Part shown: positions 51,959 through 63,583 of the stretch, one piece after another
Position numbering within the stretch: the first letter of the stretch is position 1
Layout: every line of letters starts with the position of its first letter
Assembly (NCBI GenBank): GCA_029781795.1
Contig: JAKOWB010000447.1
Coordinates: forward strand, 1 to 64,000
Reading direction: 5' to 3'
DNA: 64,000 nt
From: Pseudomonadota bacterium
Lineage (GTDB): Bacteria; Pseudomonadota; Alphaproteobacteria; Kiloniellales; JACOMY01
Notes under the pieces: generated by a model
Databases searched by the model: none
Told to the model about the DNA's origin: nothing
What the model saw: the letters and a program-made list of their open reading frames with translations, nothing else
Translations under genes and position numbers: made by a program

Positions 51959-53164
51959 ATGGATGCCGCCAGTCTTGCCGCCGATCCGCGTTTCCTGCCG
52001 CTTGCCCAATGGCTGACCGAGGCGGGCGAGCGCGCGCGCGGCGCCGGCGAGGTACTGGAAGGCTATGCCGAGCGGTTGATGGCCGCCGGCCTGCCGCTGG
52101 TGCGGGCCTCGACCCACATCCAGACGCTGCACAGCGAGCGGACGGGAATCGGCCGGGTCTGGCGGCAGGGCCAGAGCACAGTGGAGCAGCACTACGACTA
52201 CTCCGCCGACGTCGATCACGCCTACGACAGCAGTCCGATCAAGACGGTGCACGACACCCGCAAGTGGCTGTCGCTCTGGCCGCAGAAAGAGGATACGGCC
52301 TATTCGATCCTGCCGGATCTCAGGGCGCAGGGCATCACGCACTACCTCGTGGCACCGCTGTTCTACTCCGATGGCGAGGTACATGCCGTCACCTTCGCGA
52401 CCGACCGGCCCGAGGGTTTCGGCGACGACGACCTGTTGCTGCTGAAAAGGCTGCAGCCGCTCTACAGCCGCATCCTGGAGCTGAAGACCCTGCACCGCAT
52501 GCTGACCGAGGTGCTGAGCATCTATGTCGGGCGCGAGCCGGGCGGCCGCATCCTGGCCGGCCAGGTGCGGCGCGGCGACGTCACGCAGCTCGCCGCCGCC
52601 ATGCTCTACGTCGATCTGCGCGGCTTCACCCAGCTCTCCAACGAGATGGACGATACCAGCCTGGTGGCGTTGCTGAACCGTTACTTCGACTGCTTCGTGC
52701 CGCCGGTCGTCGCGCAGGGCGGCGAGGTGCTGAAGTTCATCGGCGATGCCGTGCTGGCGATCTTCCCGCAGCCCGAGGGCGAAGCGCCGGTGAAGGAGCC
52801 ACGCCTGCGCGCGCTGGCCGCCGCCGAGGAGGGCCTCGCCAACCTGGCCCGCATGAACCTTGAGACGCGGCCAGCCGAGCGGCCGCTGAAGGCCGGCGTG
52901 GCCCTGCACCTGGGGCGCGTCGCCTATGGCAACGTCGGCTCGGTGGAGCGGCAGGATTTCACTGTCATCGGGCGCGACGTGAATCTGGTCAGTCGCCTCG
53001 CCGCGCTCTGCGCCCGCACCGAGCAGGCGCTGCTGATGTCGGCGCGCTTCGCGCAGGGACTCAAGCGTCCGCTGCAGGCCATGGGGCCCTTCCGCCTTAA
53101 GGGCTTCACGGAACGCCAGCGCGTCTACACGCTGCTCGAGGCGTTCGCCGCCGACGCCGCCTAG
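51959..53164 (+). CDS. Class III adenylate cyclase
   Basis: 401 residues. N-terminal region (about 30-185) looks like a GAF-type sensor but is not firmly assigned. The cyclase domain from about 212 has metal Asp219 (YVDLRGFTQLS) and Asp263 (FIGDAVLAIF), adenine-selecting Lys259 and Asp333 (RQDFTVIG), and transition-state Asn342 and Arg346 (RDVNLVSRL), so it should be active on ATP. No membrane segment. Stop overlaps the convergent glycosyltransferase stop in CTAG. Confidence 0.92.
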   Translation: MDAASLAADPRFLPLAQWLTEAGERARGAGEVLEGYAERLMAAGLPLVRASTHIQTLHSERTGIGRVWRQGQSTVEQHYDYSADVDHAYDSSPIKTVHDTRKWLSLWPQKEDTAYSILPDLRAQGITHYLVAPLFYSDGEVHAVTFATDRPEGFGDDDLLLLKRLQPLYSRILELKTLHRMLTEVLSIYVGREPGGRILAGQVRRGDVTQLAAAMLYVDLRGFTQLSNEMDDTSLVALLNRYFDCFVPPVVAQGGEVLKFIGDAVLAIFPQPEGEAPVKEPRLRALAAAEEGLANLARMNLETRPAERPLKAGVALHLGRVAYGNVGSVERQDFTVIGRDVNLVSRLAALCARTEQALLMSARFAQGLKRPLQAMGPFRLKGFTERQRVYTLLEAFAADAA

Positions 53165-54111
53165 ACCCGGCCGAGCAGGCGGACGAGGCGCTGCCGCAGC
53201 CGCCAGATGCGCGAGCGCTCCATGAAGGCGGCACGCGCTTCGGCCCGGCGCGTACGCGCCTGCTCCTGCGCCAGCGTGCGCCGCATGGCATCGAGCGTCG
53301 TCGCCTCGGCCTTGTCGCGCGCCGCACGCTCCACTGCGGCCAGACGCAGCAGTCCCTCGCCGGCCATCGCCAGGCTCCGCGCGGCGAAATCGGCCCGCCA
53401 CAGCGGATCACGCGCGCGATCGGCATAGCGGCGCGTCTCCTCCAGCCGGCGCTCGATCGTCATGTCACGGCGCAGGGAGTTGGGCAGGCAGACGGCGGTC
53501 ACCGCGAAACGCGATGCCACGGTCAGGCCAGGGTGGCGCAGGAACTTGCACCACATGTGAAGGTCGCTCCACTCGCCCGGGGGTGGGCTCGTCCAGCCCT
53601 CCGGCAGGGCCCTGTAGGCCGCGAGCCGATAGCCGACCGTGGTCGGGCTGGCGAGGTTGCCGCGCCCGGCGAGCAGCGTCGCGCGGACCTGTGGATCGGC
53701 CAGGCTGCCGGGCATCGGCGCGATCCTGCCGTCAGGCGCGATGACGACGTGCAGCACATTGCCAAAGTCCGCGTGGCGCAGCAGCGCATCCATCTCTTCG
53801 AGGTGATTCTCGAGCCAGAGGTCGTCATCGCCGATCTGGCAGACGTAGGTTCCGCGCGCCTCCTGCAGTGCCTGGTGCCGCCACTTCTCGCCACGAAGAC
53901 CGCTTTTGGGATGGGCCAGCACGCGCAGGCGCGTATCCTCGGCCGCCAGGCGCTCGGCATAGGCGACGGTCGCCGGCGGCGCCCCGTCGCAGATGATGAA
54001 GAGCTCGAAGTCGCTGCGGGTCTGTTCCAGAACCGAGGCAACCGCGAAGGGCAGCAGTTCCGGGCCGCGGTGAACCGGAACCATGACCGTGAAGGTCGGG
54101 TCGCGTTCCAT
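53161..54111 (-). CDS. Family 2 glycosyltransferase A
   Basis: GT-A glycosyltransferase, 316 residues: VMVPVHRGPELLPFAVASVL at the N-terminus, CDGAPP, and the nucleotide-sugar/metal motif GDDD 94-97. The C-terminal third is a basic helical tail (ARAAFMERSRIWRLRQRLVR) that may bind membrane. Begins 2 bases after the Gfo/Idh stop. Closely related to glycosyltransferase B at 56674-57639 (shared LPNSLRR, LRGE-WRH, GDDD). Acceptor unknown. Confidence 0.86.
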   Translation of the reverse strand: MERDPTFTVMVPVHRGPELLPFAVASVLEQTRSDFELFIICDGAPPATVAYAERLAAEDTRLRVLAHPKSGLRGEKWRHQALQEARGTYVCQIGDDDLWLENHLEEMDALLRHADFGNVLHVVIAPDGRIAPMPGSLADPQVRATLLAGRGNLASPTTVGYRLAAYRALPEGWTSPPPGEWSDLHMWCKFLRHPGLTVASRFAVTAVCLPNSLRRDMTIERRLEETRRYADRARDPLWRADFAARSLAMAGEGLLRLAAVERAARDKAEATTLDAMRRTLAQEQARTRRAEARAAFMERSRIWRLRQRLVRLLGRV

Positions 54112-54113
54112 CC

Positions 54114-55040
54114 TCAGCCTCCCGCCAGGCCCGCGGCCACGCGGATCTCCTCCAGGCGCTCGGCGACCAGCAGCTCGTCCGCCAGGGAGCTGAGCGGCGG
54201 CGGCCCGCCGGCCAGGTAGTCGAGGAAGGCCACCACCTCGGCCCGCAGCGGCATGTCCTGCGACAGCGGAAGGTGCTCCTCGCGCGCCGCCGCGCCCGGC
54301 CCGCCCTGGCGGAGCGTCAAGGCCTCGTCATGGGAACCGCCGAGTTCGGCCGTCGCCGTACTGCCGACCAGCACCACGGACCGCCGCTGGACCGGTTGCA
54401 GGATGGAGTACTCCAACAGTACCTGGGGCGAGGCCACGTCGTTCGCGCACAGGCGGGCGAAGACCGCGCCGTCGCGCCGCGCGGGCAGCAGAGCCGCCGC
54501 CTCGCGCAGCGGCGGAATCCCGCCCAGCAGGTGCAGTGTCATGGAAAGGGCGTGCGGCAGCAGGATGGTCGCGGCATCCACATCCTGATGCGGATTCCCC
54601 CAGCCGAGCTGCCGTATCTGCAGCGCCAGGGGCCGGCCCAGGCGGCCCCGTTCCAGCAGCGAGCGCAGTGCCATCACGCCGGGATGGTAGCGCCATTTGT
54701 GCATGACGAAGAGGCGCTCGGGCTTCGAGGCGGCGATTCGCCTGGCCGCGGCCAGGTCATGGCCCAGCGGCTTCTCGCAGAAGATCGGCCGGTCGCGGCG
54801 CAGCAGCGCAGTCACCACCGCCTCGTGGGTGACGGTGGGCGTCGCGACCAGATAGCCGTCCTGTGGCGGCAAGACTGCCAGCGACGGATGCCAGCTCGCC
54901 GCGCCCAGCGCCAGGGCGTCCGCGCGGGTGGCGTCGTCCAGCGTGACCACGGCGACACGCGCGCCCAGCGCCACCAGGTCGCGCAGGATGTTGCGGCCCC
55001 AGCGGCCGCAGCCAACCAGGCCAATCCTGGCAGCGCTCAC
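54114..55040 (-). CDS. Gfo/Idh/MocA family oxidoreductase
   Basis: NAD(P)-dependent sugar dehydrogenase type, 308 residues. Rossmann motif GLVGCGRWGRNILRD, ATPTVTHEAVVTALL, the family EKP motif (FCEKPLGHDL) with catalytic Lys, and a C-terminal beta-sheet domain. The GTG at 55040 lies in a GTGA overlap with the RmlC-like stop, so I prefer it to the GTG at 55046. Oxidises or reduces a sugar in the same pathway as its neighbours. Confidence 0.88.
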   Translation of the reverse strand: MSAARIGLVGCGRWGRNILRDLVALGARVAVVTLDDATRADALALGAASWHPSLAVLPPQDGYLVATPTVTHEAVVTALLRRDRPIFCEKPLGHDLAAARRIAASKPERLFVMHKWRYHPGVMALRSLLERGRLGRPLALQIRQLGWGNPHQDVDAATILLPHALSMTLHLLGGIPPLREAAALLPARRDGAVFARLCANDVASPQVLLEYSILQPVQRRSVVLVGSTATAELGGSHDEALTLRQGGPGAAAREEHLPLSQDMPLRAEVVAFLDYLAGGPPPLSSLADELLVAERLEEIRVAAGLAGG

Positions 55041-55600
55041 GCGCACCGCGCCAGGGCGCCCGCGTAGTCGCGCAACAGCGCATCCAGATCGCCGGCTTCC
55101 CGGTCGCGCGCCGACAGGATCGGGTCACGGCACGGCCAGCTGAGACCAAGGCCGGGATCGTCGAAGCGACAGCCCAGGTCGTCCACCGGGTCCCAGCCAC
55201 GGTCGACGGCCAGGAGCATGGTTGCCGCGACCGGCGCCAGCAGGCCGTGCGCCACGCCAGGCGGTATCCGCAATCCCGTTGGCATCTCGGCATCCAGCGT
55301 CAGCATGGCCGACTTGCCCTGCTTCCACGGCCGCCCGCCGGGGCCTCGCAGATCCTTGAGGCCGATCTGCATCCTGCCGGCGACCACGCAGAGGAAGTCG
55401 GCGTGACGATGGTGCACGTGGACCCCGCGCAGGCTGTTGGGCGCGCAGTGCAGCAGGGTGACCTGTTGCGCGGCCACCCCTTCCGGCCAGGCCGCGCGCC
55501 ATACCTCCATGAGGCTGCCACGCGCGTCGCGATGCTGCTCGAGCCGGCGCAAGGCAACGCCGGGGATCTCCGTCAACGACGGCGGGAGAGGCTCATTCAT
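55037..55600 (-). CDS. RmlC-like sugar epimerase/isomerase A
   Basis: Cupin of the dTDP-4-dehydrorhamnose 3,5-epimerase family, 187 residues from ATG 55600. The RGxH motif with the likely catalytic His is present (RGVHVHH, His61), and IPPGVAHG and the C-terminal CRFDDPGLGLSWP fit the fold. Related to B (57636-58223), which has Arg at this site. Co-transcribed with Gfo/Idh and glycosyltransferase A. Substrate sugar unknown. Confidence 0.82.
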   Translation of the reverse strand: MNEPLPPSLTEIPGVALRRLEQHRDARGSLMEVWRAAWPEGVAAQQVTLLHCAPNSLRGVHVHHRHADFLCVVAGRMQIGLKDLRGPGGRPWKQGKSAMLTLDAEMPTGLRIPPGVAHGLLAPVAATMLLAVDRGWDPVDDLGCRFDDPGLGLSWPCRDPILSARDREAGDLDALLRDYAGALARCA

Positions 55601-55749
55601 GGAGGCAGGGTGCCATCGCTCCGCCCGGCCTGCCAATCGCTGCGACGGACGACGCCGCCGGCGACCGGCCCGGCGGCGGGCCGGCCGCTCGCCGCCGGGC
55701 AGTGGCCATGCTAGCGTTGCGCGGCGGGTCGGTCGGGAGGGGGTGAGTC

Positions 55750-56538
55750 ATGCGGATCACGGTTCGCGTCGTCTCAGCGCTGGCACTGGCACTGCTGCTA
55801 TCCATCGCGCCCCGGGCGCCAAAGGCGGACGTCGCCTCGGACAAGGCCGCGGCCCGCCAGGCCCTGGCGGAACAGGCCGTTGCGACCTTCGAGCACCTGC
55901 AGGAGGTGGCTCGCATGCTCGAGGACGCCACGGCCTATGCCTTCATCTGGGAGACCGGCTTCGGCCCGGTGGTGACGACGCTGCCACGGCAGAAGGTCGA
56001 CGCTTTCGTCAACTATCTGCAGGTCGAGATGCTGCTGAACGGCCGTGCGCCGGACCAGGCCAAGATCGCCAGGGCCGCCGCGGTCCTCGGCATCGACGGC
56101 GTGCTGGTGGGGGCCATCCTGGGCGACCAGCAGGCCGTGCTGTCGGAGCAGGGTTCCGCCGGCGCGCACAAGCGGCTGGAGCGGATGGCGGCCCAGCACA
56201 GGCCAGCGCTGGAAGCCTTCGGCGCCGCGCTGGACGAGGAGCTGCAGTCCCTGCAGGCCGAGGCCGATCAGATCGCCGCCGCTACCACCTGGCCGCCGCC
56301 CAAGGCGGCGGGTAACGTCTTCTCGCCGGTACAGGTCGGCGGCATGACGATGGACTACTGCCTCAGCTTCGCTACCACCTGCGGCCAGCCGGCGGCCGAC
56401 GAGTTCTGCCGGCGCAACGGCTACACGCGGGCCGCCTCGTTCGACTGGAGCTATACCCGCCCGACCCGCACGCTGGTCAGCAACGAGACCTGCGACCAGG
56501 ACGGCTGCGGCGGCTACAACCGCATTACCTGCGAGTAG
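55750..56538 (+). CDS. Secreted protein with C-terminal Cys-rich domain
   Basis: 262 residues of unknown function. Signal peptide about 1-27 (VSALALALLLSIAPRAPKAD), an alpha-helical middle (30-180, with EQAVATFEHLQEVARMLED), and a compact C-terminal domain with six cysteines at 204, 211, 220, 248, 253 and 261, beginning MDYCLSFATTCGQPAADEFC. Similar Cys domains occur in other secreted alphaproteobacterial proteins; three disulfides are likely. The only plus-strand gene between two minus-strand sugar cassettes. GGGAGGGGG precedes the ATG. Confidence 0.75.
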   Translation: MRITVRVVSALALALLLSIAPRAPKADVASDKAAARQALAEQAVATFEHLQEVARMLEDATAYAFIWETGFGPVVTTLPRQKVDAFVNYLQVEMLLNGRAPDQAKIARAAAVLGIDGVLVGAILGDQQAVLSEQGSAGAHKRLERMAAQHRPALEAFGAALDEELQSLQAEADQIAAATTWPPPKAAGNVFSPVQVGGMTMDYCLSFATTCGQPAADEFCRRNGYTRAASFDWSYTRPTRTLVSNETCDQDGCGGYNRITCE

Positions 56539-56576
56539 CGGCCGCGCGCCAGCGGTCGCCTGCCTGCCCTGCTAGT

Positions 56577-56677
56577 GCATTTTCGAGCGAAGTGGACGCC
56601 GGTTCGCGTCAAGAAAATGCGTGAAATCAAGAGGTAGCTAGAGCGGCTCGATTCAATCAAAAGCGAAACCGCTCTAG
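56577..56677. repeat. Palindromic intergenic repeat element with two hairpins
   Basis: First hairpin: perfect arms GCATTTTC (56577-56584) and GAAAATGC (56613-56620). Second: CTAGAGCGG (56638-56646) and CCGCTCTAG (56669-56677). Between and around them the text matches a class of mosaic palindromes common between genes in alphaproteobacteria (RIME-like). The second arm overlaps the stop codon of glycosyltransferase B (56674-56676), so the element supplies that stop and may terminate both convergent genes. Confidence 0.7.
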
Positions 56678-57639
56678 GCGCGGCCCAGCAGGCGGGCCAG
56701 ACGCTGGCGCCAGCGCCAGAACCGAGAACGCTCGACGAAGGCGGCGCGGGCCTCGGCCCGGTTGGCGCGCCGCTGTGCCTGGCGCAGGGCCTTGCGCACA
56801 CTTTCCAGTTCCACGGCCAGCGCCGACGCCTGCCGCGCCGCGGCCTCGCGCCCGGCGGCCTGCAGGCGCAGCAGGCCCTGGCCGGCCTGCGCCAAGGCCG
56901 CGGCAGCATAGCTTGCCCGCCAGGCCGGGTCGGCGGCGTAGCCGGCGAAGCGGCGGCTCTCCTCGGCGCGCTGCTCGATACTGAACCCGCGCCTGAGCGA
57001 GTTGGGCAGGCAGATGGCGGTGACAGCGAAACGGGTGGCGAAGCGCAGCCCCGGCTGGCGCAGGAACTTGCGCCACATGAAGAGATCGCTCCAGAGGTCT
57101 GCCGGCGCCTGGCTCCAGCCTTCGGATAGCGCGCGATAGGCCTCCAGGCGGTAGCCGCTGCAGGTAGGCCCGGCGACGTTGTAGCGCTCTTCCAGCATGC
57201 GCCGGCGCACCGCCGGGTCGGCCAGATCGCCAACCACGGGCTCCGGGCGACCGTCGGGATGGGTGGTCACATGGATCGTGTTGCCGAAGTCCGCCTCGCG
57301 CAGCAGCTTGCCCATCTCCTCCAGGTGGTTAGGCAGCCAGATGTCGTCGTCGCCCAGCTGGCAGACGAAGCGGCCGCGCGCCTCCCGCAGCGCCGCGTGG
57401 CGCCAGATCTCGCCGCGCAGACCGGCCTTGGGATGGCTCCGGACCCGCAGGCGGGCATCGCCGGCCGCCGCCGCCTCGGCCAGGGCGATCGTGGCCGGCG
57501 GCGCGCCGTCGCCGATGACGAAGAGCTCGAAATCACCAAGGCGCTGCGCCTGGACGGAGGCAATGGCAAAGCGCAGCAGCTCGGGCCCGCGGTTCACCGG
57601 CAGGAGCACGGTGAAGAGCGGCACCGGAGCGCCGCTCAT
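56674..57639 (-). CDS. Family 2 glycosyltransferase B
   Basis: 321 residues, GT-A fold: VLLPVNRGPELLRFAIASV, GDGAPP, GDDDIW, LPNSLRR. The final EARAAFVERSRFWRWRQRL matches the tail of glycosyltransferase A, and the two align along their whole length, so they are paralogues from a local duplication. ATG 57639 overlaps the RmlC B stop (ATGA). Its last codons and stop lie inside a palindromic repeat. Confidence 0.86.
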   Translation of the reverse strand: MSGAPVPLFTVLLPVNRGPELLRFAIASVQAQRLGDFELFVIGDGAPPATIALAEAAAAGDARLRVRSHPKAGLRGEIWRHAALREARGRFVCQLGDDDIWLPNHLEEMGKLLREADFGNTIHVTTHPDGRPEPVVGDLADPAVRRRMLEERYNVAGPTCSGYRLEAYRALSEGWSQAPADLWSDLFMWRKFLRQPGLRFATRFAVTAICLPNSLRRGFSIEQRAEESRRFAGYAADPAWRASYAAAALAQAGQGLLRLQAAGREAAARQASALAVELESVRKALRQAQRRANRAEARAAFVERSRFWRWRQRLARLLGRA

Positions 57640-58223
57640 GGCGCGCCAGCCGGGCCGGCCCCCTGCGCCGTCTCGAGCGCGGCGGCATAGCCGGCGACCA
57701 GGCGGTCCAGGGTGCCGGCGGCGGCGTCTTGCGCGGACAGCAGGGGTGATGCGTCGGGCCAGGCCAGACCCAGCGCGGGATCGTCGAAACGGCAGCCGGG
57801 CGTCTCGTCCGTGGCCTCGACGGACTGGGTGGCCAGCAGCAGGGAGGCCGCGTCCGCCGCATAGAAACCGCGCGCGACGCCCGGCGGAATGGCAAGCACG
57901 CTCGGGACAGCGGCGTCGAGCGTAAGCAGCAGCGCTGGACCGGCGGCGCTGGGCTGCCGGCCAGGGCCGCGGCAATCCTTCAAGCCGACCAGCACGCGAC
58001 CGGCGACGACGGTGACGTTCTCCACATGGCACACCCGCAGCCGCAGGCCGCGCAAGCCGCGCGGGACCAGCTGCATGAGATCGATCCGCCGGGGCGTCCT
58101 GTCGGCGCCCCAGGAGGCACGCCACAGTTCAGTCAGGGTGCCGCGCCGATCGGGGTGCGGTCGCAACGCCCGCACGGCAAGGCCGGGGATGGCAGGGCCC
58201 GACGCGGCGAACGCGGCCCTCAT
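57636..58223 (-). CDS. RmlC-like protein B lacking the catalytic His
   Basis: 195 residues, homologous to RmlC A and C. The conserved RGxH is RGLR here, with Arg61 exactly where A has His61, and AHG is ARG (PPGVARG). Rest of the cupin is intact (LVGLKDCRGPGRQ; CRFDDPALGLAWP). It may be inactive, work with a partner, or bind a different sugar. Overlaps both neighbours by ATGA, so it is translated between RmlC C and glycosyltransferase B. Confidence 0.78.
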   Translation of the reverse strand: MRAAFAASGPAIPGLAVRALRPHPDRRGTLTELWRASWGADRTPRRIDLMQLVPRGLRGLRLRVCHVENVTVVAGRVLVGLKDCRGPGRQPSAAGPALLLTLDAAVPSVLAIPPGVARGFYAADAASLLLATQSVEATDETPGCRFDDPALGLAWPDASPLLSAQDAAAGTLDRLVAGYAAALETAQGAGPAGAP

Positions 58224-58768
58224 GCGCGATCCGCCAGCGCGGCGCAGGCCTGTCGCAGCGCCGCCAGGCTGCCGGCGGCGGCATCGCTGTCGGACAGCAC
58301 CGGCCGGTTGGCGAGCCAGGGCTCGCCCAGTTCCGGATCGTCCCAGCGGCAGGACAGCTCATGCAGCCCGTCGAACTCCCGCGAACGGCCGATCAACAGC
58401 AGCGACGGGAGACTGAAGTGGATGCCATGCAGCACCCCGGCCGGCAGGAGCAGTGCCTCCGGATGGCTCGTCTCGAATGCCAGCTGCGTGCGCCGCCCGT
58501 GGGTCGGCGACGCCGGCCTGAGGTCGAGCAGCAGGACGTCCGCGGCGCCGGACAGCAGGACATAGACCTCGTGATAGCCCGGGTGCAGATGCAGTCCGCG
58601 CAGCACGCCGGCCGCGGAGCGCGAGAGATTCCACTGCACAATGTCGAAGGTCACGGTCTCCTGGCGAAAGACCTCGACGCCGCAGCCGCTGGCATCGGCC
58701 CAGGGCTGCAAGTGCTGCAGCCTGGCGTCCGCTGGAAGATCTGCGCAGGTCACCGGAGCCGCGTGCAT
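58220..58768 (-). CDS. RmlC-like sugar epimerase/isomerase C
   Basis: 182 residues, dTDP-sugar epimerase-type cupin. Catalytic-type His60 in RGLHLHP, then DVLLLDLRPASPTHGRR, LLLPAGVLHGIHF and CRWDDPELGEPW. This is the most canonical of the three RmlC-like proteins. First gene of the C-B-glycosyltransferase B operon, 82 bases after the aroG-type stop. Confidence 0.82.
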   Translation of the reverse strand: MHAAPVTCADLPADARLQHLQPWADASGCGVEVFRQETVTFDIVQWNLSRSAAGVLRGLHLHPGYHEVYVLLSGAADVLLLDLRPASPTHGRRTQLAFETSHPEALLLPAGVLHGIHFSLPSLLLIGRSREFDGLHELSCRWDDPELGEPWLANRPVLSDSDAAAGSLAALRQACAALADRA

Positions 58769-58850: not shown

Positions 58851-60254
58851 CTACTCGCCGGCGACCGCGGCCACCTTCTGCGGCACGCCGCGCGCCTCGC
58901 GCTCGGCCTTGAGCTGCTCGGCCACCAGGAAGGCGAGCTCGAGCGCCTGGGCGCCGTTGAGGCGCGGGTCGCAGTAGGTGTGGTAGCGGTCGGCCAGCGT
59001 GGCGTCGCTGATCGCCTGCGCGCCGCCGGTGCACTCGGTCACGTCCTTGCCGGTCATCTCGACATGCACGCCGCCGGCATAGGTGCCCTCGGCCGCGTGC
59101 GCGGCGAAGAAGCCGCGCACCTCCGACAGGATGCGCTCGAAGGGCCGCGTCTTGTAGCCGGAGGAGGACTTGACCGTGTTGCCGTGCATCGGATCGCAGG
59201 ACCAGACCACCGCCCGCCCCTCGCGCTTCACCGCGCGCAGCAGCGGCGGCAGGCCGCTCTCGACCTTCTCCGCGCCCATGCGGCTGATCAGGGTCAGGCG
59301 CCCCGGCTCGTTCTCCGGGTTCAGCGCGTCGATCAGGCGGATCAACTCGTCCGGCTTCAGCGAGGGGCCGACCTTCATGCCGATCGGGTTCTTCACGCCG
59401 CGCAGGAACTCGACATGCGCGCCGTCCGGCTGGCGGGTGCGGTCGCCGATCCACAGCATGTGGGCCGAGCAGTCGTACCACTGGCCGGTCAGGCTATCGA
59501 CGCGGGTCAGTGCCTCCTCGTAGGGCAGCAGCAGCGCCTCGTGGCTGGTGTAGAAGTCGGTTTCGCGCAGCTGCGCCACGGTTTCCGACGTCAGGCCGCA
59601 GGCCGCCATGAAGGCCAGCGTCTCGTCGATGCGGGTGGAGAGCTGCTCGTAGCGCGCGCCCTGCGGCGAGCCGGCGACGAACTGCAGGTTCCACTGGTGC
59701 ACCTTGTGCAAATCGGCGAAGCCGCCCTGGGCGAAGGCGCGCAGCAGGTTCAAGGTCGCGGCCGACTGGTTGTAGGCCCGCACCATGCGCTGCGGATCGG
59801 GCGCGCGGGCGCCGTCCTCGAACTCGATGGCGTTGATGATGTCGCCGCGGTAGCTCGGCAGTTCCTTGCCGCCGATCACCTCGGTCGGGGCCGAGCGCGG
59901 CTTGGCGAACTGCCCGGCCATGCGGCCGACCTTCACCACCGGGCAGGCGGCGCCGAAGGTCAGGACCACGGCCATCTGCAGCAGCACCTTGAAGGTGTCG
60001 CGGATGGTATTGGCGTGGAACTCGCCGAAGGCCTCGGCGCAGTCACCGCCCTGCAGCAGGAAGGCCTCGCCCTTGGCGACCCGGCCGAGCGACGCCTTCA
60101 GGCTGCGCGCCTCGCCGGCGAAGACCAGCGGCGGATACTGGCGCAGCGTGCCCTCGGCGCTCTCCAGCGCCTTGGCGTCGGGATAGACGGGAACCTGCTG
60201 GATCGGCTTGCCGCGCCAGGAGGTCGGGGTCCAGGACTGCACCATCTCAGGCAT
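58851..60254 (-). CDS. Class II 3-deoxy-7-phosphoheptulonate synthase
   Basis: DAHP synthase, first step of the shikimate pathway, class II. 467 residues: [15 protein letters not shown] at the start, [11 protein letters not shown] with the metal-binding Cys, [30 protein letters not shown], and [19 protein letters not shown] with metal Glu. ATG 60254. The 181 bases upstream also hold the leader of the AT-rich SIR2-herA insertion. Confidence 0.95.
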
Positions 60255-60368
60255 CCACTTCGGAAAGGTTCTAAGCCAGGAGGAAGGGTTTTAGACCCAT
60301 GGAACCACCAAAGCCAGTCAGAAGGTTGTTCAGAAGAAGCATCAAGCCAGACAGGCAGCGAACAACTA

Positions 60369-60391
60369 CTAGCAAACGCCACTCTTGCTAG
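60369..60391. repeat. Inverted repeat upstream of the SIR2-like gene
   Basis: Perfect 7-base arms CTAGCAA (60369-60375) and TTGCTAG (60385-60391) around a 9-base loop, 45 bases before the SIR2-like GTG. Could be an operator for the defence pair or a leader hairpin. No protein coding is seen in 60255-60435. Confidence 0.5.
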
Positions 60392-60435
60392 CATAGACTC
60401 TGCACTTGCGGAATGAGGTGAGGGCAAATTCGAAC

Positions 60436-61479
60436 GTGCCAACCACTGACCAAATGATGCGTCATCTGCAGAGTTTCATTTCCGACAAAACTGTCATCAT
60501 TGTTGGGTCTGGACTATCTGTAGCAGAGGGCATTCCGGGAATGCCCTCATTGGAAGCGGCAATCAACGATGCGGTATCGGCAATTTCCTTCGAACAAATA
60601 CGGTCCGAGTGGGAAAAGATTGCCTCAAAGATACCTTCCCTTTCATTGGAAGGGGCATTGTTCGATCACCCTCCATCAGATGAATTGGAAATATTAATAC
60701 AATCCACCGTGGGTTCTTTCATAAACAAGCACGAAAAGATAATCCTCAGAGATTTGTTATTTGGCAAGAAAGTACTTCGCTTTTCTCGTTTCCTAAAGCG
60801 ATTTTCTGCATCGACCAAACCTCTTCGCGTTATCACTACGAATTACGATAGATTGGTCGAAATTGGAGCAAACCTAGCGAACCTTTCTGTCGACAATGGT
60901 TTTTCTAGAGAAATAGTAGGGTCTATGAAATCCAGAAGCCAAAAATATGATCATATGAAAGGTGTCAAGCTAGAGGCGGGTAAAAGAATAACCTATCTTT
61001 TCGAGGACCGAATACTTGTTGCCAAGCCACACGGCAGCCTAGATTGGTATAGCGTAAATGGAAATCAATTTAGAACTACTATAGAAATCGATCAGACGCC
61101 ATTGATAATAACACCAGGAACAAAAAAATATCGCGCTGGTTATGATCAGCCGTTCGACCGGCAGCGTGAGCTTGCAAATCAATGGATAGATAGCGCTCAG
61201 AAGCTTATGTTCATAGGGTATGGATTCAATGACGACCACCTGGAGACTCATATTCGGCAACGGGCATCTGCCGGCGTTCCTATACTTTCACTAGCGCGTT
61301 CTATAACACCTAAAGCCGAAGACCTTGCAAACCAAACGGAAGCGATGACGGTGCTTTATCTTGCCGAAAAGGACGGTGGAGAGGGCACCCAATGGAAAAT
61401 GGGATCTGACCTAGTGTTCTTGCCTGGGAAATGCTGGTGGGACCTCGGGTCGTTCGTTACGGAGGTTTTGGAGCCATGA
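60436..61479 (+). CDS. SIR2-like defence NADase
   Basis: 347 residues from GTG 60436, which has AGGTGAGGG 11 bases upstream; TTG 60406 and ATG 60454 are alternatives. SIR2 fold: NAD loop GSGLS 24-28, TTNYD 124-128, KPHGSLDWY 187-195 and GYGFNDDHLE 251-260. These are features of SIR2-like NADases in phage defence, not of protein deacetylases with the zinc Cys tetrad. Coupled to a HerA-like ATPase by ATGA. Visibly AT-rich (25/60 G+C at 60841-60900), unlike its neighbours. Expected to cleave NAD when activated by infection. Confidence 0.88.
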   Translation: MPTTDQMMRHLQSFISDKTVIIVGSGLSVAEGIPGMPSLEAAINDAVSAISFEQIRSEWEKIASKIPSLSLEGALFDHPPSDELEILIQSTVGSFINKHEKIILRDLLFGKKVLRFSRFLKRFSASTKPLRVITTNYDRLVEIGANLANLSVDNGFSREIVGSMKSRSQKYDHMKGVKLEAGKRITYLFEDRILVAKPHGSLDWYSVNGNQFRTTIEIDQTPLIITPGTKKYRAGYDQPFDRQRELANQWIDSAQKLMFIGYGFNDDHLETHIRQRASAGVPILSLARSITPKAEDLANQTEAMTVLYLAEKDGGEGTQWKMGSDLVFLPGKCWWDLGSFVTEVLEP

Positions 61480-63230
61480 GCGGAGCACTTTCCTTCGAAA
61501 ATGTCGACGAGATTGGACATGTCGCTGGAGTAGACACAAGTAAAGTAGCGGTCGATATTGTTGATGAAGATATTCTTACAAGAATTACAATCGGCCAAAT
61601 GGTAGCAATTCAAGGGGTGACTGAATTGGAGCACCTCATTGGCATCGTAGATCGCGTTACGCGCGGAGTTAGGGATTCTTTACCTGACCCAAACGAGGGT
61701 GACGAGCTTTTTATTGGCACTGTTTTTAAAGACTCAATACGAGTTGTTCTTATCGGCACTTACAGATCAGTAGATGGTTCGAAGAAAAATACATTCAAAA
61801 GAGGTGCCGACAGTTTTCCGCAAATCAACAAGAGAGTCTATAATATTCAAGGAAAGAATCTGCAACGTTTTATGAGCTTACTATCGGCAGACATCCCCTC
61901 CGGTGAACAATTAAAACTTGGCGCATTTGTCTCTGACGCAAACGCTGATGCAATTGCGAGCGGCGACAAGTTTTTTCAACGCCATGCTGCAATCCTTGGA
62001 AGCACAGGATCTGGGAAGAGCTGGGCTGTCGCGCTGATCTTAGAACGTTCTGCTAAATTGAAATACCCAAACATTGTTGTATTCGATATGCATGGGGAAT
62101 ACTCACCACTCGCGGATGTTGAGAAAGGTGGATTTGCTCGCCGCTATCGAATCGCGGGACCAGCTGATCTGGAGAAAGACGACGATGATTTGATTTTTCT
62201 CCCCTATTGGCTATTGAACCGTGACGAAATGTTGTCAATGATACTTGATCGGAGCGACCAAAACGCACCCAACCAAGCGTCGCGCTTTACGTCTCACGTA
62301 AGGGAACTGAAGGATGCGTTTCTCGTCTCACAAGGGCGGGATGCTATCCGCAAGACATTTACTGTAGATTCTCCAATCCCATACGAGATTGACGATCTTG
62401 TTCGAAGGCTCGATGGTGATGACACCGCAAAGAAAACGGGCGCGCAGGGGCGCGAAATTAAAGGTGATTGGGAAGGAAAACTAACAAGATTTGTATCGCG
62501 TCTAAAAGCTAGACTCGAGGACAGGCGGTATGGGTTTATGTTTCAGCCAACGAAGTCTGCTCTCCATTACGACTGGCTATCGGAACAACTATTTAAGATC
62601 TTATGCTCCGATACAAAATCTGGTATCAAAATAGTTGATTTTTCCGAGGTGCCTTCGGATATACTACCTGTCGTCACTGGAACATTTGCTAGATTAATTT
62701 TTGACGTTCAGTTTTGGATGCAACCATCTTCTCGTACTCCCGTAGCAATTTTTTGCGATGAAGCTCACTTGTATTTGCCCGTAAAGGAAGATGCTGACAG
62801 TGTGGAAAAGCAGGCTTTACGGAATTTTGAAAGAATCGCGAAAGAAGGTCGAAAATACGGCCTTTCTCTGGTAGTCGTAAGCCAAAGGCCGGCTGATGTA
62901 AGTAAAACGATACTTAGTCAATGCAATAACTTTCTTGCTTTGCGCCTCACTAACGACACTGATCAGTCTGTGGTTAAGAGGTTGGTCCCCGATGCTATGG
63001 CCGCAATGACCGATCTCCTTCCATTGTTAGATGTAGGAGAGGCATTCTTACTCGGCGATGCAGTGCTTCTACCCACACGCATTCGACTTGATGCGCCTGC
63101 AATTCAGCCAAATAGTGCTACGCGTCCATTTTGGAAGGAGTGGTCAAGCACGGTATCGCAAGCCGACGCGATCCGACAAGGCATTGAAAACTTGCGCGGG
63201 CAAACGCGTTTGCCGGAGATTGCGAGATGA
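61476..63230 (+). CDS. HerA-like DNA translocase of a SIR2-HerA defence pair
   Basis: 584 residues. N-terminal HAS-type barrel region (1-150), Walker A GSTGSGKS 175-182, Walker B with D428-E429 (IFCDEAHLYL), and RRYGFMF and VVSQRPADVSK in the hexamer ATPase core. Partner of SIR2-like proteins in the Nezha-type system, where the two form a large complex. ATG 61476 overlaps the SIR2-like stop. AT-rich (21/60 G+C at 62041-62100). Stops 2 bases before the cupin stop on the other strand. Confidence 0.9.
   Translation: MSGALSFENVDEIGHVAGVDTSKVAVDIVDEDILTRITIGQMVAIQGVTELEHLIGIVDRVTRGVRDSLPDPNEGDELFIGTVFKDSIRVVLIGTYRSVDGSKKNTFKRGADSFPQINKRVYNIQGKNLQRFMSLLSADIPSGEQLKLGAFVSDANADAIASGDKFFQRHAAILGSTGSGKSWAVALILERSAKLKYPNIVVFDMHGEYSPLADVEKGGFARRYRIAGPADLEKDDDDLIFLPYWLLNRDEMLSMILDRSDQNAPNQASRFTSHVRELKDAFLVSQGRDAIRKTFTVDSPIPYEIDDLVRRLDGDDTAKKTGAQGREIKGDWEGKLTRFVSRLKARLEDRRYGFMFQPTKSALHYDWLSEQLFKILCSDTKSGIKIVDFSEVPSDILPVVTGTFARLIFDVQFWMQPSSRTPVAIFCDEAHLYLPVKEDADSVEKQALRNFERIAKEGRKYGLSLVVVSQRPADVSKTILSQCNNFLALRLTNDTDQSVVKRLVPDAMAAMTDLLPLLDVGEAFLLGDAVLLPTRIRLDAPAIQPNSATRPFWKEWSSTVSQADAIRQGIENLRGQTRLPEIAR
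63199..63214. repeat. 16-base perfect palindrome at the herA 3' end
   Basis: GGCAAACGCGTTTGCC within the last codons of the HerA-like gene. No loop and no U-run, so it is not an ordinary terminator; it could be a protein-binding site or chance. Confidence 0.55.
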
Positions 63231-63232
63231 TT

Positions 63233-63583
63233 TCACTGCGCGATGGCGTAGTACTTGCGGATCGGCTCCAGCGTCTCCCAGGTGCCGGTGAAGCCCTTGG
63301 GGATGACGAAGGCGTCGCCGGCCTTGTAGGTCTTGGCCTTGCCGCCATCGGGGGTGAGCTTCACCTTGCCGGCCAGCAGGACGATGAACTCGTCCTCGCC
63401 GTACTTCACCGTCCACTTGCCCTTGGACGAGGTCCAGACGCCGCAGTGGAACTTGCCCTTGGCGTTGGTGAAGTCGTTGCGCGTGCCGGTGACCGGCGCG
63501 CCGGCCAGCACCTTCCTGGCATCGATCGGTGCCTTCTCGGCCTTGCCGCCGCGCGGCCTCACGGCAATGGTCTGAACGGTCAT
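63233..63583 (-). CDS. Small cupin domain protein
   Basis: Cupin_3-type protein of 116 residues: GKFHCGVWTSSKGKWTVKYG, EDEFIVLLAGKVKLTPDGG, and YKAGDAFVIPKGFTGTWETL. Related single-domain cupins are ureidoglycine aminohydrolase-like or EutQ-like; a specific reaction cannot be given. ATG 63583 with GGGG upstream. Its stop is 2 bases from the herA stop, so the defence insertion ends exactly at its 3' side. Lies downstream of gor, probably co-transcribed. Confidence 0.85.
   Translation of the reverse strand: MTVQTIAVRPRGGKAEKAPIDARKVLAGAPVTGTRNDFTNAKGKFHCGVWTSSKGKWTVKYGEDEFIVLLAGKVKLTPDGGKAKTYKAGDAFVIPKGFTGTWETLEPIRKYYAIAQ

What the first reader, a model, noticed from the sequence alone, without database searches (positions are those of the whole stretch)
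60436..63230. SIR2-HerA anti-phage defence pair in an AT-rich insertion
SIR2 motifs (GSGLS, TTNYD, HGS, GYGFNDDH) and HerA motifs (GSTGSGKS, CDEAHLYL) with an ATGA overlap match the described SIR2-HerA (Nezha) class, where NAD loss stops phage. Base composition is far below the neighbourhood, so it was acquired recently.
Basis: partly seen in the sequence, partly recalled or inferred. Interest (0 to 1): 0.68.

Follow-up and report, generated by a model that had tools for sequence, protein, structure and literature searches.

The report
Stand-alone SIR2–HerA phage-defence gene pair
A GC-rich bacterium carries a compact, foreign-looking pair of genes, an NAD-destroying enzyme and its DNA-motor partner, that belongs to a known and widespread type of phage-defence system; it is a divergent but ordinary member.

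Summary
An intact sir2 (GTG 60436–61479) overlaps herA (ATG 61476–63230) by ATGA, inside a ~3 kb, 46% GC stretch of a ~71% GC contig. PADLOC models named SIR2 (376 bits) and HerA (763 bits) match over full length. The two active-site residues shown to be essential in Vibrio cholerae Nezha (Asn, His) are present. The predicted SIR2 fold matches SIR2 subunits of solved SIR2–HerA complexes before any other sirtuin. In 93 of 93 relatives retrieved with SIR2 alone, herA follows directly. Relatives sit among R-M, CRISPR, Gabija, Qat and BREX genes; control regions do not. I read it as an NAD-depleting SIR2–HerA defence pair; no function was tested. Two corrections. First, it is not in the E. coli-type Nezha equivalog (28 and 171 bits; cut-offs 500 and 800). 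It belongs to a separate clade in at least 11 phyla whose HerA resembles DUF4297-type and Paenibacillus HerA more than E. coli Nezha HerA. Second, foreign origin is supported (GC3 0.42–0.44 versus 0.85–0.96; absent from 60 order relatives; gor–aroF adjacent without it in six), but "recent" is not shown and no donor was found. New member of a known kind; low interest.

The parts
60436..61479 (+). sir2: SIR2-type NADase-like protein, 347 aa (GTG start; alternatives GTG 60418, TTG 60406)
   Evidence: PADLOC SIR2 PDLC04082 376.6 bits, full length; Pfam SIR2_2 PF13289; AF2 pLDDT 93.9 and Foldseek to SIR2 of SIR2-HerA complexes
60841..60843 (+). codon of the catalytic Asn (N136 from GTG 60436; TTNYD)
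   Evidence: aligned to the TTNYD of E. coli Nezha SIR2 in PDB 8j4u; invariant in 110 aligned SIR2s; equivalent N168A abolishes immunity in V. cholerae
61030..61032 (+). codon of the catalytic His (H199; KPHGS)
   Evidence: invariant in 110 aligned SIR2s; equivalent H227A abolishes immunity in V. cholerae
61476..61479 (+). ATGA overlap of sir2 stop and herA start
   Evidence: sequence; the 4-nt overlap is kept in 69 of 110 related pairs
61476..63230 (+). herA: HerA/FtsK-type ATPase, 584 aa (N-terminal beta-rich HAS-barrel-like region, RecA-like core, C-terminal helices)
   Evidence: PADLOC HerA PDLC04105 763 bits; Pfam DUF87 and HerA_C; AF2 pLDDT 86.3, Foldseek to HerA of anti-phage complexes
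61998..62021 (+). Walker A GSTGSGKS of HerA (residues 175-182)
   Evidence: sequence; invariant or nearly so in 61 aligned HerAs
62754..62768 (+). Walker B CDEAH of HerA (residues 427-431)
   Evidence: sequence; invariant in 61 aligned HerAs
60255..60435 (.). AT-rich leader between divergent aroF and sir2, presumed promoter region; left edge of the foreign segment near 60260
   Evidence: composition; no promoter-like match reported in this interval
58851..60254 (-). left flank: class II DAHP synthase (aroF-like), host-like composition
   Evidence: DNA match in 36 of 38 genomes searched
63233..63583 (-). right flank: small cupin gene ending 2 bp from the herA stop, host-like composition; followed by a glutathione reductase-like gene (gor)
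   Evidence: gor-aroF adjacency without the insert in six order relatives

Best explanation
It is a stand-alone two-gene SIR2-HerA defence operon gained horizontally between a cupin gene and aroF. [quoted passage not shown] HerA, an ATP-driven DNA translocase, licenses or senses. On phage infection the SIR2 active site (N136/H199) hydrolyses NAD+ and the infected cell stops supporting phage growth. Shown here: gene integrity, motifs, fold, obligate pairing, shared evolutionary history of the two genes, and the defence-island setting of relatives. Inferred from characterised homologues: complex formation, NAD+ hydrolysis, abortive outcome. Unknown: the trigger.
For: Full-length PADLOC matches. 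Catalytic Asn/His conserved, and they correspond to residues whose mutation abolishes Nezha immunity. The clade SIR2 profile hits the three solved SIR2-HerA SIR2s first in PDB (E 4e-25, 4e-19, 9e-14), well ahead of ThsA. The Foldseek top 38 are all SIR2s from SIR2-HerA entries. HerA Walker A/B invariant or nearly so. herA directly downstream in 93 of 93 SIR2-retrieved loci with DNA left, 4-nt overlap in 69 of 110 pairs, SIR2 and HerA distances correlate r=0.94 over 95 pairs. Flanking genes of relatives match 165 PADLOC families among 82 proteins (R-M, PglZ, Qat, Cas3c/Cas8c, GajB, LmuA) against 3 families from at most 3 of 78 control proteins. S. thermophilus Gao19 homologues sharing only 17.9% and 22% identity both protect against phage (PMC12322248).
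Against: No function tested. The window's own neighbours include no defence gene. SIR2 is on a long branch, at most 40% identical to any relative found. Far below the NCBIfam Nezha equivalog cut-offs. The genome assembly is fragmented (454 contigs, 7.8% contamination), so a chimeric contig cannot be wholly excluded.
Confidence: 0.87

Rival explanations
1. The pair defends, but NAD+ depletion is secondary. HerA works in the manner of DUF4297-HerA, loading or translocating DNA, and the main output is DNA damage or ATP consumption.
For: HerA profile and structure are closest to DUF4297-associated HerAs (9c1m, 8ziq, 8xau), ahead of the E. coli Nezha HerA 8j4u. E. coli Nezha is reported to have several activities (PMC11559045).
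Against: No nuclease domain in either protein. NADase active-site residues strictly kept. In V. cholerae Nezha point mutations in the SIR2 site abolish immunity. The Paenibacillus SIR2-HerA HerA is also among the nearer structures.
Confidence: 0.12
2. A SIR2-HerA module detached from a larger methylase/helicase defence operon (as on Citrobacter and Klebsiella plasmids), here a non-functional remnant.
For: Some relatives lie inside operons such as HTH-DUF499-SIR2-HerA-DUF1156 MTase-SNF2 and DrmD/SNF2-SIR2-HerA-MTase III.
Against: Most loci of the clade show none of those partner genes at the threshold used. The window pair nests among stand-alone pairs in the HerA tree. Both frames are intact with all motifs.
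Confidence: 0.06
3. A housekeeping NAD-dependent deacetylase/DNA-repair pair rather than defence.
For: SIR2 and HerA folds also occur in deacetylases and in HerA-NurA repair.
Against: No classic SIR2 family match (only SIR2_2). Absent from the other 60 genomes of the order. Foreign composition and sporadic distribution across at least 11 phyla. Defence-rich neighbourhoods of relatives.
Confidence: 0.03
4. Assembly artefact: a foreign 3 kb piece wrongly joined into this contig.
For: Fragmented assembly with 7.8% estimated contamination; sharp composition edges.
Against: The insert lies inside one 71 kb contig with host-like DNA on both sides. It ends precisely between gene ends, with no gene broken.
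Confidence: 0.04

Closest known systems
E. coli Nezha / SIR2-HerA (PDB 8j4u, 8su9, 8sub, 8uaf) and V. cholerae Nezha
   Same: Adjacent SIR2 + HerA genes, catalytic Asn/His, SIR2 fold (Foldseek E ~1e-13 to 1e-11), Walker A/B HerA
   Different: Only ~17% identity in the SIR2 structural alignment and ~18-20% in HerA. NCBIfam NF042942 28 bits against cut-off 500; NF042943 171 against 800. Separate clade. SIR2 is shorter (347 aa against 415).
Paenibacillus SIR2-HerA (PsSIR2; PDB 8w9l, 8wld, 8woc; the species is my own knowledge)
   Same: Best single Foldseek hit for SIR2 (8wld); HerA 26-29% identical in structural alignment
   Different: HerA is 696 aa against 584; sequences otherwise distant
HerA-DUF4297 (PDB 8xau/8xav, 9c1m, 8ziq)
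   Same: Nearest solved relatives of this HerA by profile and structure
   Different: The partner here is a SIR2 protein, not a Cap4-like DUF4297 nuclease
PADLOC SIR2 PDLC04082 and HerA PDLC04105 families
   Same: Full-length matches at 376 and 763 bits, so this sequence lineage was already in the 2023 model set
   Different: The models carry no description; whether any member has been tested was not found here
ThsA (Thoeris), DSR2, KomC
   Same: SIR2 NADase effectors; weaker fold matches
   Different: Different partners, extra domains and triggers; they rank below the SIR2-HerA entries

Membership tests
SIR2-HerA (Gao19/Nezha in the broad sense) | SIR2-like gene directly followed by herA on the same strand | tested here: met
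   obligate in relatives
SIR2-HerA (Gao19/Nezha in the broad sense) | SIR2 NADase residues Asn and His | tested here: met
   N136 and H199. For loci fetched with the TTNYD/HGS patterns this conservation is partly by selection; loci fetched by HerA or by profile are not affected
SIR2-HerA (Gao19/Nezha in the broad sense) | HerA with Walker A, Walker B and the HerA fold | tested here: met
SIR2-HerA (Gao19/Nezha in the broad sense) | SIR2 fold nearest to SIR2 subunits of SIR2-HerA complexes | tested here: met
SIR2-HerA (Gao19/Nezha in the broad sense) | Assembly into a SIR2 dodecamer-HerA hexamer complex | not testable with these tools
   no complex prediction offered
SIR2-HerA (Gao19/Nezha in the broad sense) | NAD+ depletion and phage resistance | not testable with these tools
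   needs assays
E. coli-type Nezha equivalog (NCBIfam NF042942 + NF042943) | Score above the curated equivalog cut-offs | tested here: not met
   28 bits (cut-off 500) and 171 bits (cut-off 800)
E. coli-type Nezha equivalog (NCBIfam NF042942 + NF042943) | Groups with Nezha-type pairs in trees | tested here: not met
   clade separate from ten Nezha-type HerAs; core branch support 100; SIR2 tree agrees
HerA-DUF4297 | DUF4297/Cap4-like nuclease partner | tested here: not met
   partner is SIR2
Multi-gene methylase/helicase systems that contain SIR2-HerA (Citrobacter/Klebsiella plasmid type) | Methyltransferase, SNF2 or DUF499 ATPase genes in the same operon | tested here: not met
   only two genes in the foreign segment; flanks are host genes

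The most novel reading that the evidence does not exclude
This pair represents a third, deep SIR2-HerA lineage, joining a SIR2 NADase to a HerA of the DUF4297/Paenibacillus kind, with a trigger or assembly unlike E. coli Nezha. It is used both alone and as an exchangeable effector module inside methylase/helicase defence operons.
Probability: 0.25. Interest if true: 0.45.

Novelty: new member of a known kind. Interest (0 to 1): 0.2.

Why it matters
It adds a divergent member to a defence type that so far has solved structures from only three sequences found here, all far from this clade. The clade spans at least 11 bacterial phyla and also occurs on conjugative plasmids. A tested member would show whether NAD+ depletion and the SIR2–HerA assembly are general, or special to the E. 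coli and Paenibacillus lineages.

Tried and rejected
Insertion sequence or integrative element: no integrase, transposase, tRNA or bounding repeats. Larger operon in the window: host genes on both sides, no PADLOC hit among nine neighbours. Phage-borne copy: no tblastn match in 50,697 phage records, though 16 uncultivated viral contigs hold relatives, some of them probably prophage or host DNA. Partner swap of the SIR2 gene: the window SIR2 is diverged, but its residual from the SIR2/HerA regression is only about 1.2 SD and largely the same loci are nearest by both genes, so no swap is indicated. A family search by NCBIfam accession failed, so the PADLOC model was used instead. Promoter scan: no match in the leader upstream of sir2, and counts within the insert near the shuffled mean.

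Full report
What is in the sequence. The window carries two overlapping genes on the + strand. sir2 most likely starts at GTG 60436 and ends at 61479; herA runs from ATG 61476 to 63230; the junction is ATGA. They fill a segment of about 3 kb with 46% GC in a contig of about 71% GC. Third-position GC is 0.44 and 0.42, against 0.85–0.96 in the neighbours. The left neighbour is a divergent class II DAHP synthase gene. The right neighbour is a convergent small cupin gene that ends 2 bp from the herA stop, followed by a glutathione reductase-like gene. These flanking names are my reading of the translations. Apart from a ~180 bp leader there is nothing else in the foreign segment: no integrase, transposase, tRNA or bounding repeat.

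What the proteins are. PADLOC models named SIR2 and HerA match over the full lengths (PDLC04082, 376.6 bits; PDLC04105, 763.4 bits). Pfam gives SIR2_2 for the first, and DUF87 and HerA_C for the second. An AlphaFold2 model of SIR2 built on 69 window and locus sequences has mean pLDDT 93.9. In the PDB the first 38 Foldseek matches are all SIR2 chains of SIR2–HerA entries, and only then ThsA, DSR2 and KomC. A profile of the clade finds the three solved SIR2–HerA SIR2 sequences first. The HerA model (pLDDT 86.3) is nearest to HerA of DUF4297–HerA and of the 8wld/8wiv (Paenibacillus) SIR2–HerA, and further from E. coli Nezha HerA.

Active site. The Asn of TTNYD (N136 counted from GTG 60436) and the His of KPHGS (H199) align with the same motifs in E. 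coli Nezha SIR2. In V. cholerae the equivalent N168A and H227A mutations abolish immunity to ICP1, ICP2 and ICP3, and deleting herA raises plaquing (PMC11559045). Both residues are invariant in 110 aligned SIR2s. Part of this conservation is by selection, because the genome and viral loci were fetched with patterns around these motifs; loci fetched by HerA or by the PADLOC profile carry them too.

Pairing. All 93 loci retrieved with SIR2 alone whose DNA continues past the gene have herA next. Over all sets the two genes are adjacent on one strand in 110 pairs, 69 of them with the exact 4-nt overlap. Pairwise SIR2 and HerA distances correlate at r=0.94 over 95 pairs. Among HerA relatives in the class, those scoring above 430 bits all have the SIR2 partner, and one more at 270 bits has a distant SIR2 partner. 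The others that were examined, near 230 bits and below, have none.

Membership and novelty. In the broad usage of the literature (Gao19, also known as SIR2–HerA or Nezha; PMC12322248) this is a member: every testable defining feature is met. It is not a member of the curated E. coli-type equivalogs (28 bits against a cut-off of 500, and 171 against 800). In trees it falls in a separate, well-supported clade found in at least 11 phyla. The trees are quick searches with long branches, so deep order is uncertain, but the separation from ten Nezha-type HerAs is clear. The existence of well-fitting PADLOC models shows that the lineage was already catalogued in 2023. Hence 'new member of a known kind'. 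Divergence alone is not evidence of a new mechanism: two S. thermophilus homologues sharing 17.9% and 22% identity both protect.

Defence context. The window's own neighbours include no defence gene. Relatives do have such neighbours. In 82 flanking proteins from about two dozen related loci, 165 PADLOC families match at E≤1e-15, including type I, IIG and III R-M, PglZ, QatA/QatC, Cas3c/Cas8c, GajB and LmuA. In 78 proteins from 20 arbitrary regions of class genomes only 3 families match, all RtcR-like. The comparison counts families, not proteins, and the control comes from one class while the relatives span many phyla, but the contrast is large.

Acquisition. No relative of this SIR2 was found in 60 other genomes of the order, and four of 384 other class genomes carry the pair type. 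In six order relatives gor and aroF lie together with no SIR2–HerA between them. That makes a gain in this lineage likely. It does not date the event: the closest HerA found is 67% and the closest SIR2 about 40% identical, no donor is visible, and only one other genome of the family is held. The cupin gene is host-like in composition and may be a separate, older difference.

Mechanism. Most likely the two proteins are translated together, assemble, and deplete NAD+ in infected cells; HerA acts as the ATP-driven platform. The steps shown are sequence, fold, pairing and context. Assembly, NADase activity, abortive outcome and trigger are inferred or unknown. The main rival is a DUF4297–HerA-like mode with DNA processing as the main output, which I rate at about 0.12, because there is no nuclease domain and the NADase site is strictly kept.

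Noticed in passing
L032 / L161 (NZ_CP056638.1, Citrobacter IncN plasmid; SIR2 and HerA matches on many Klebsiella, Citrobacter and Enterobacter plasmids): A SIR2-HerA pair sits inside a longer operon HTH - DUF499 - unknown - SIR2 - HerA - DUF1156 methyltransferase - unknown - SNF2, beside Tn7-like TnsD/TnsE genes; the HTH weakly matches mad1. It looks like a multi-gene defence system with SIR2-HerA as its effector module.
   Followed up: partly
L034 (Planctomycete plasmid), L124, L126, L127: SIR2-HerA next to type III-like methyltransferase genes, in L034 and L124 also a DrmD/SNF2-like helicase: another operon type with this module.
   Followed up: partly
window 53161-58768, - strand: Repeated modules of glycosyltransferase, Gfo/Idh-like oxidoreductase and small cupin-type sugar-modifying genes, probably a surface-polysaccharide cluster (my reading of the translations; only PADLOC was run).
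   Followed up: no
window 60255-60435: The foreign segment begins a few bases upstream of the aroF start codon, so aroF has probably lost its native upstream region and may be read from inserted DNA.
   Followed up: no
L145-L160 (IMG/VR contigs): Sixteen uncultivated viral contigs carry relatives of this SIR2, nearly all with HerA next to it, although no cultured phage record matches; possibly prophages or host DNA.
   Followed up: no
L040 (G412:C37): A SIR2-HerA pair whose HerA scores between the clade and the rest and whose SIR2 is nearer to the Nezha kind; on a long branch in both trees.
   Followed up: no
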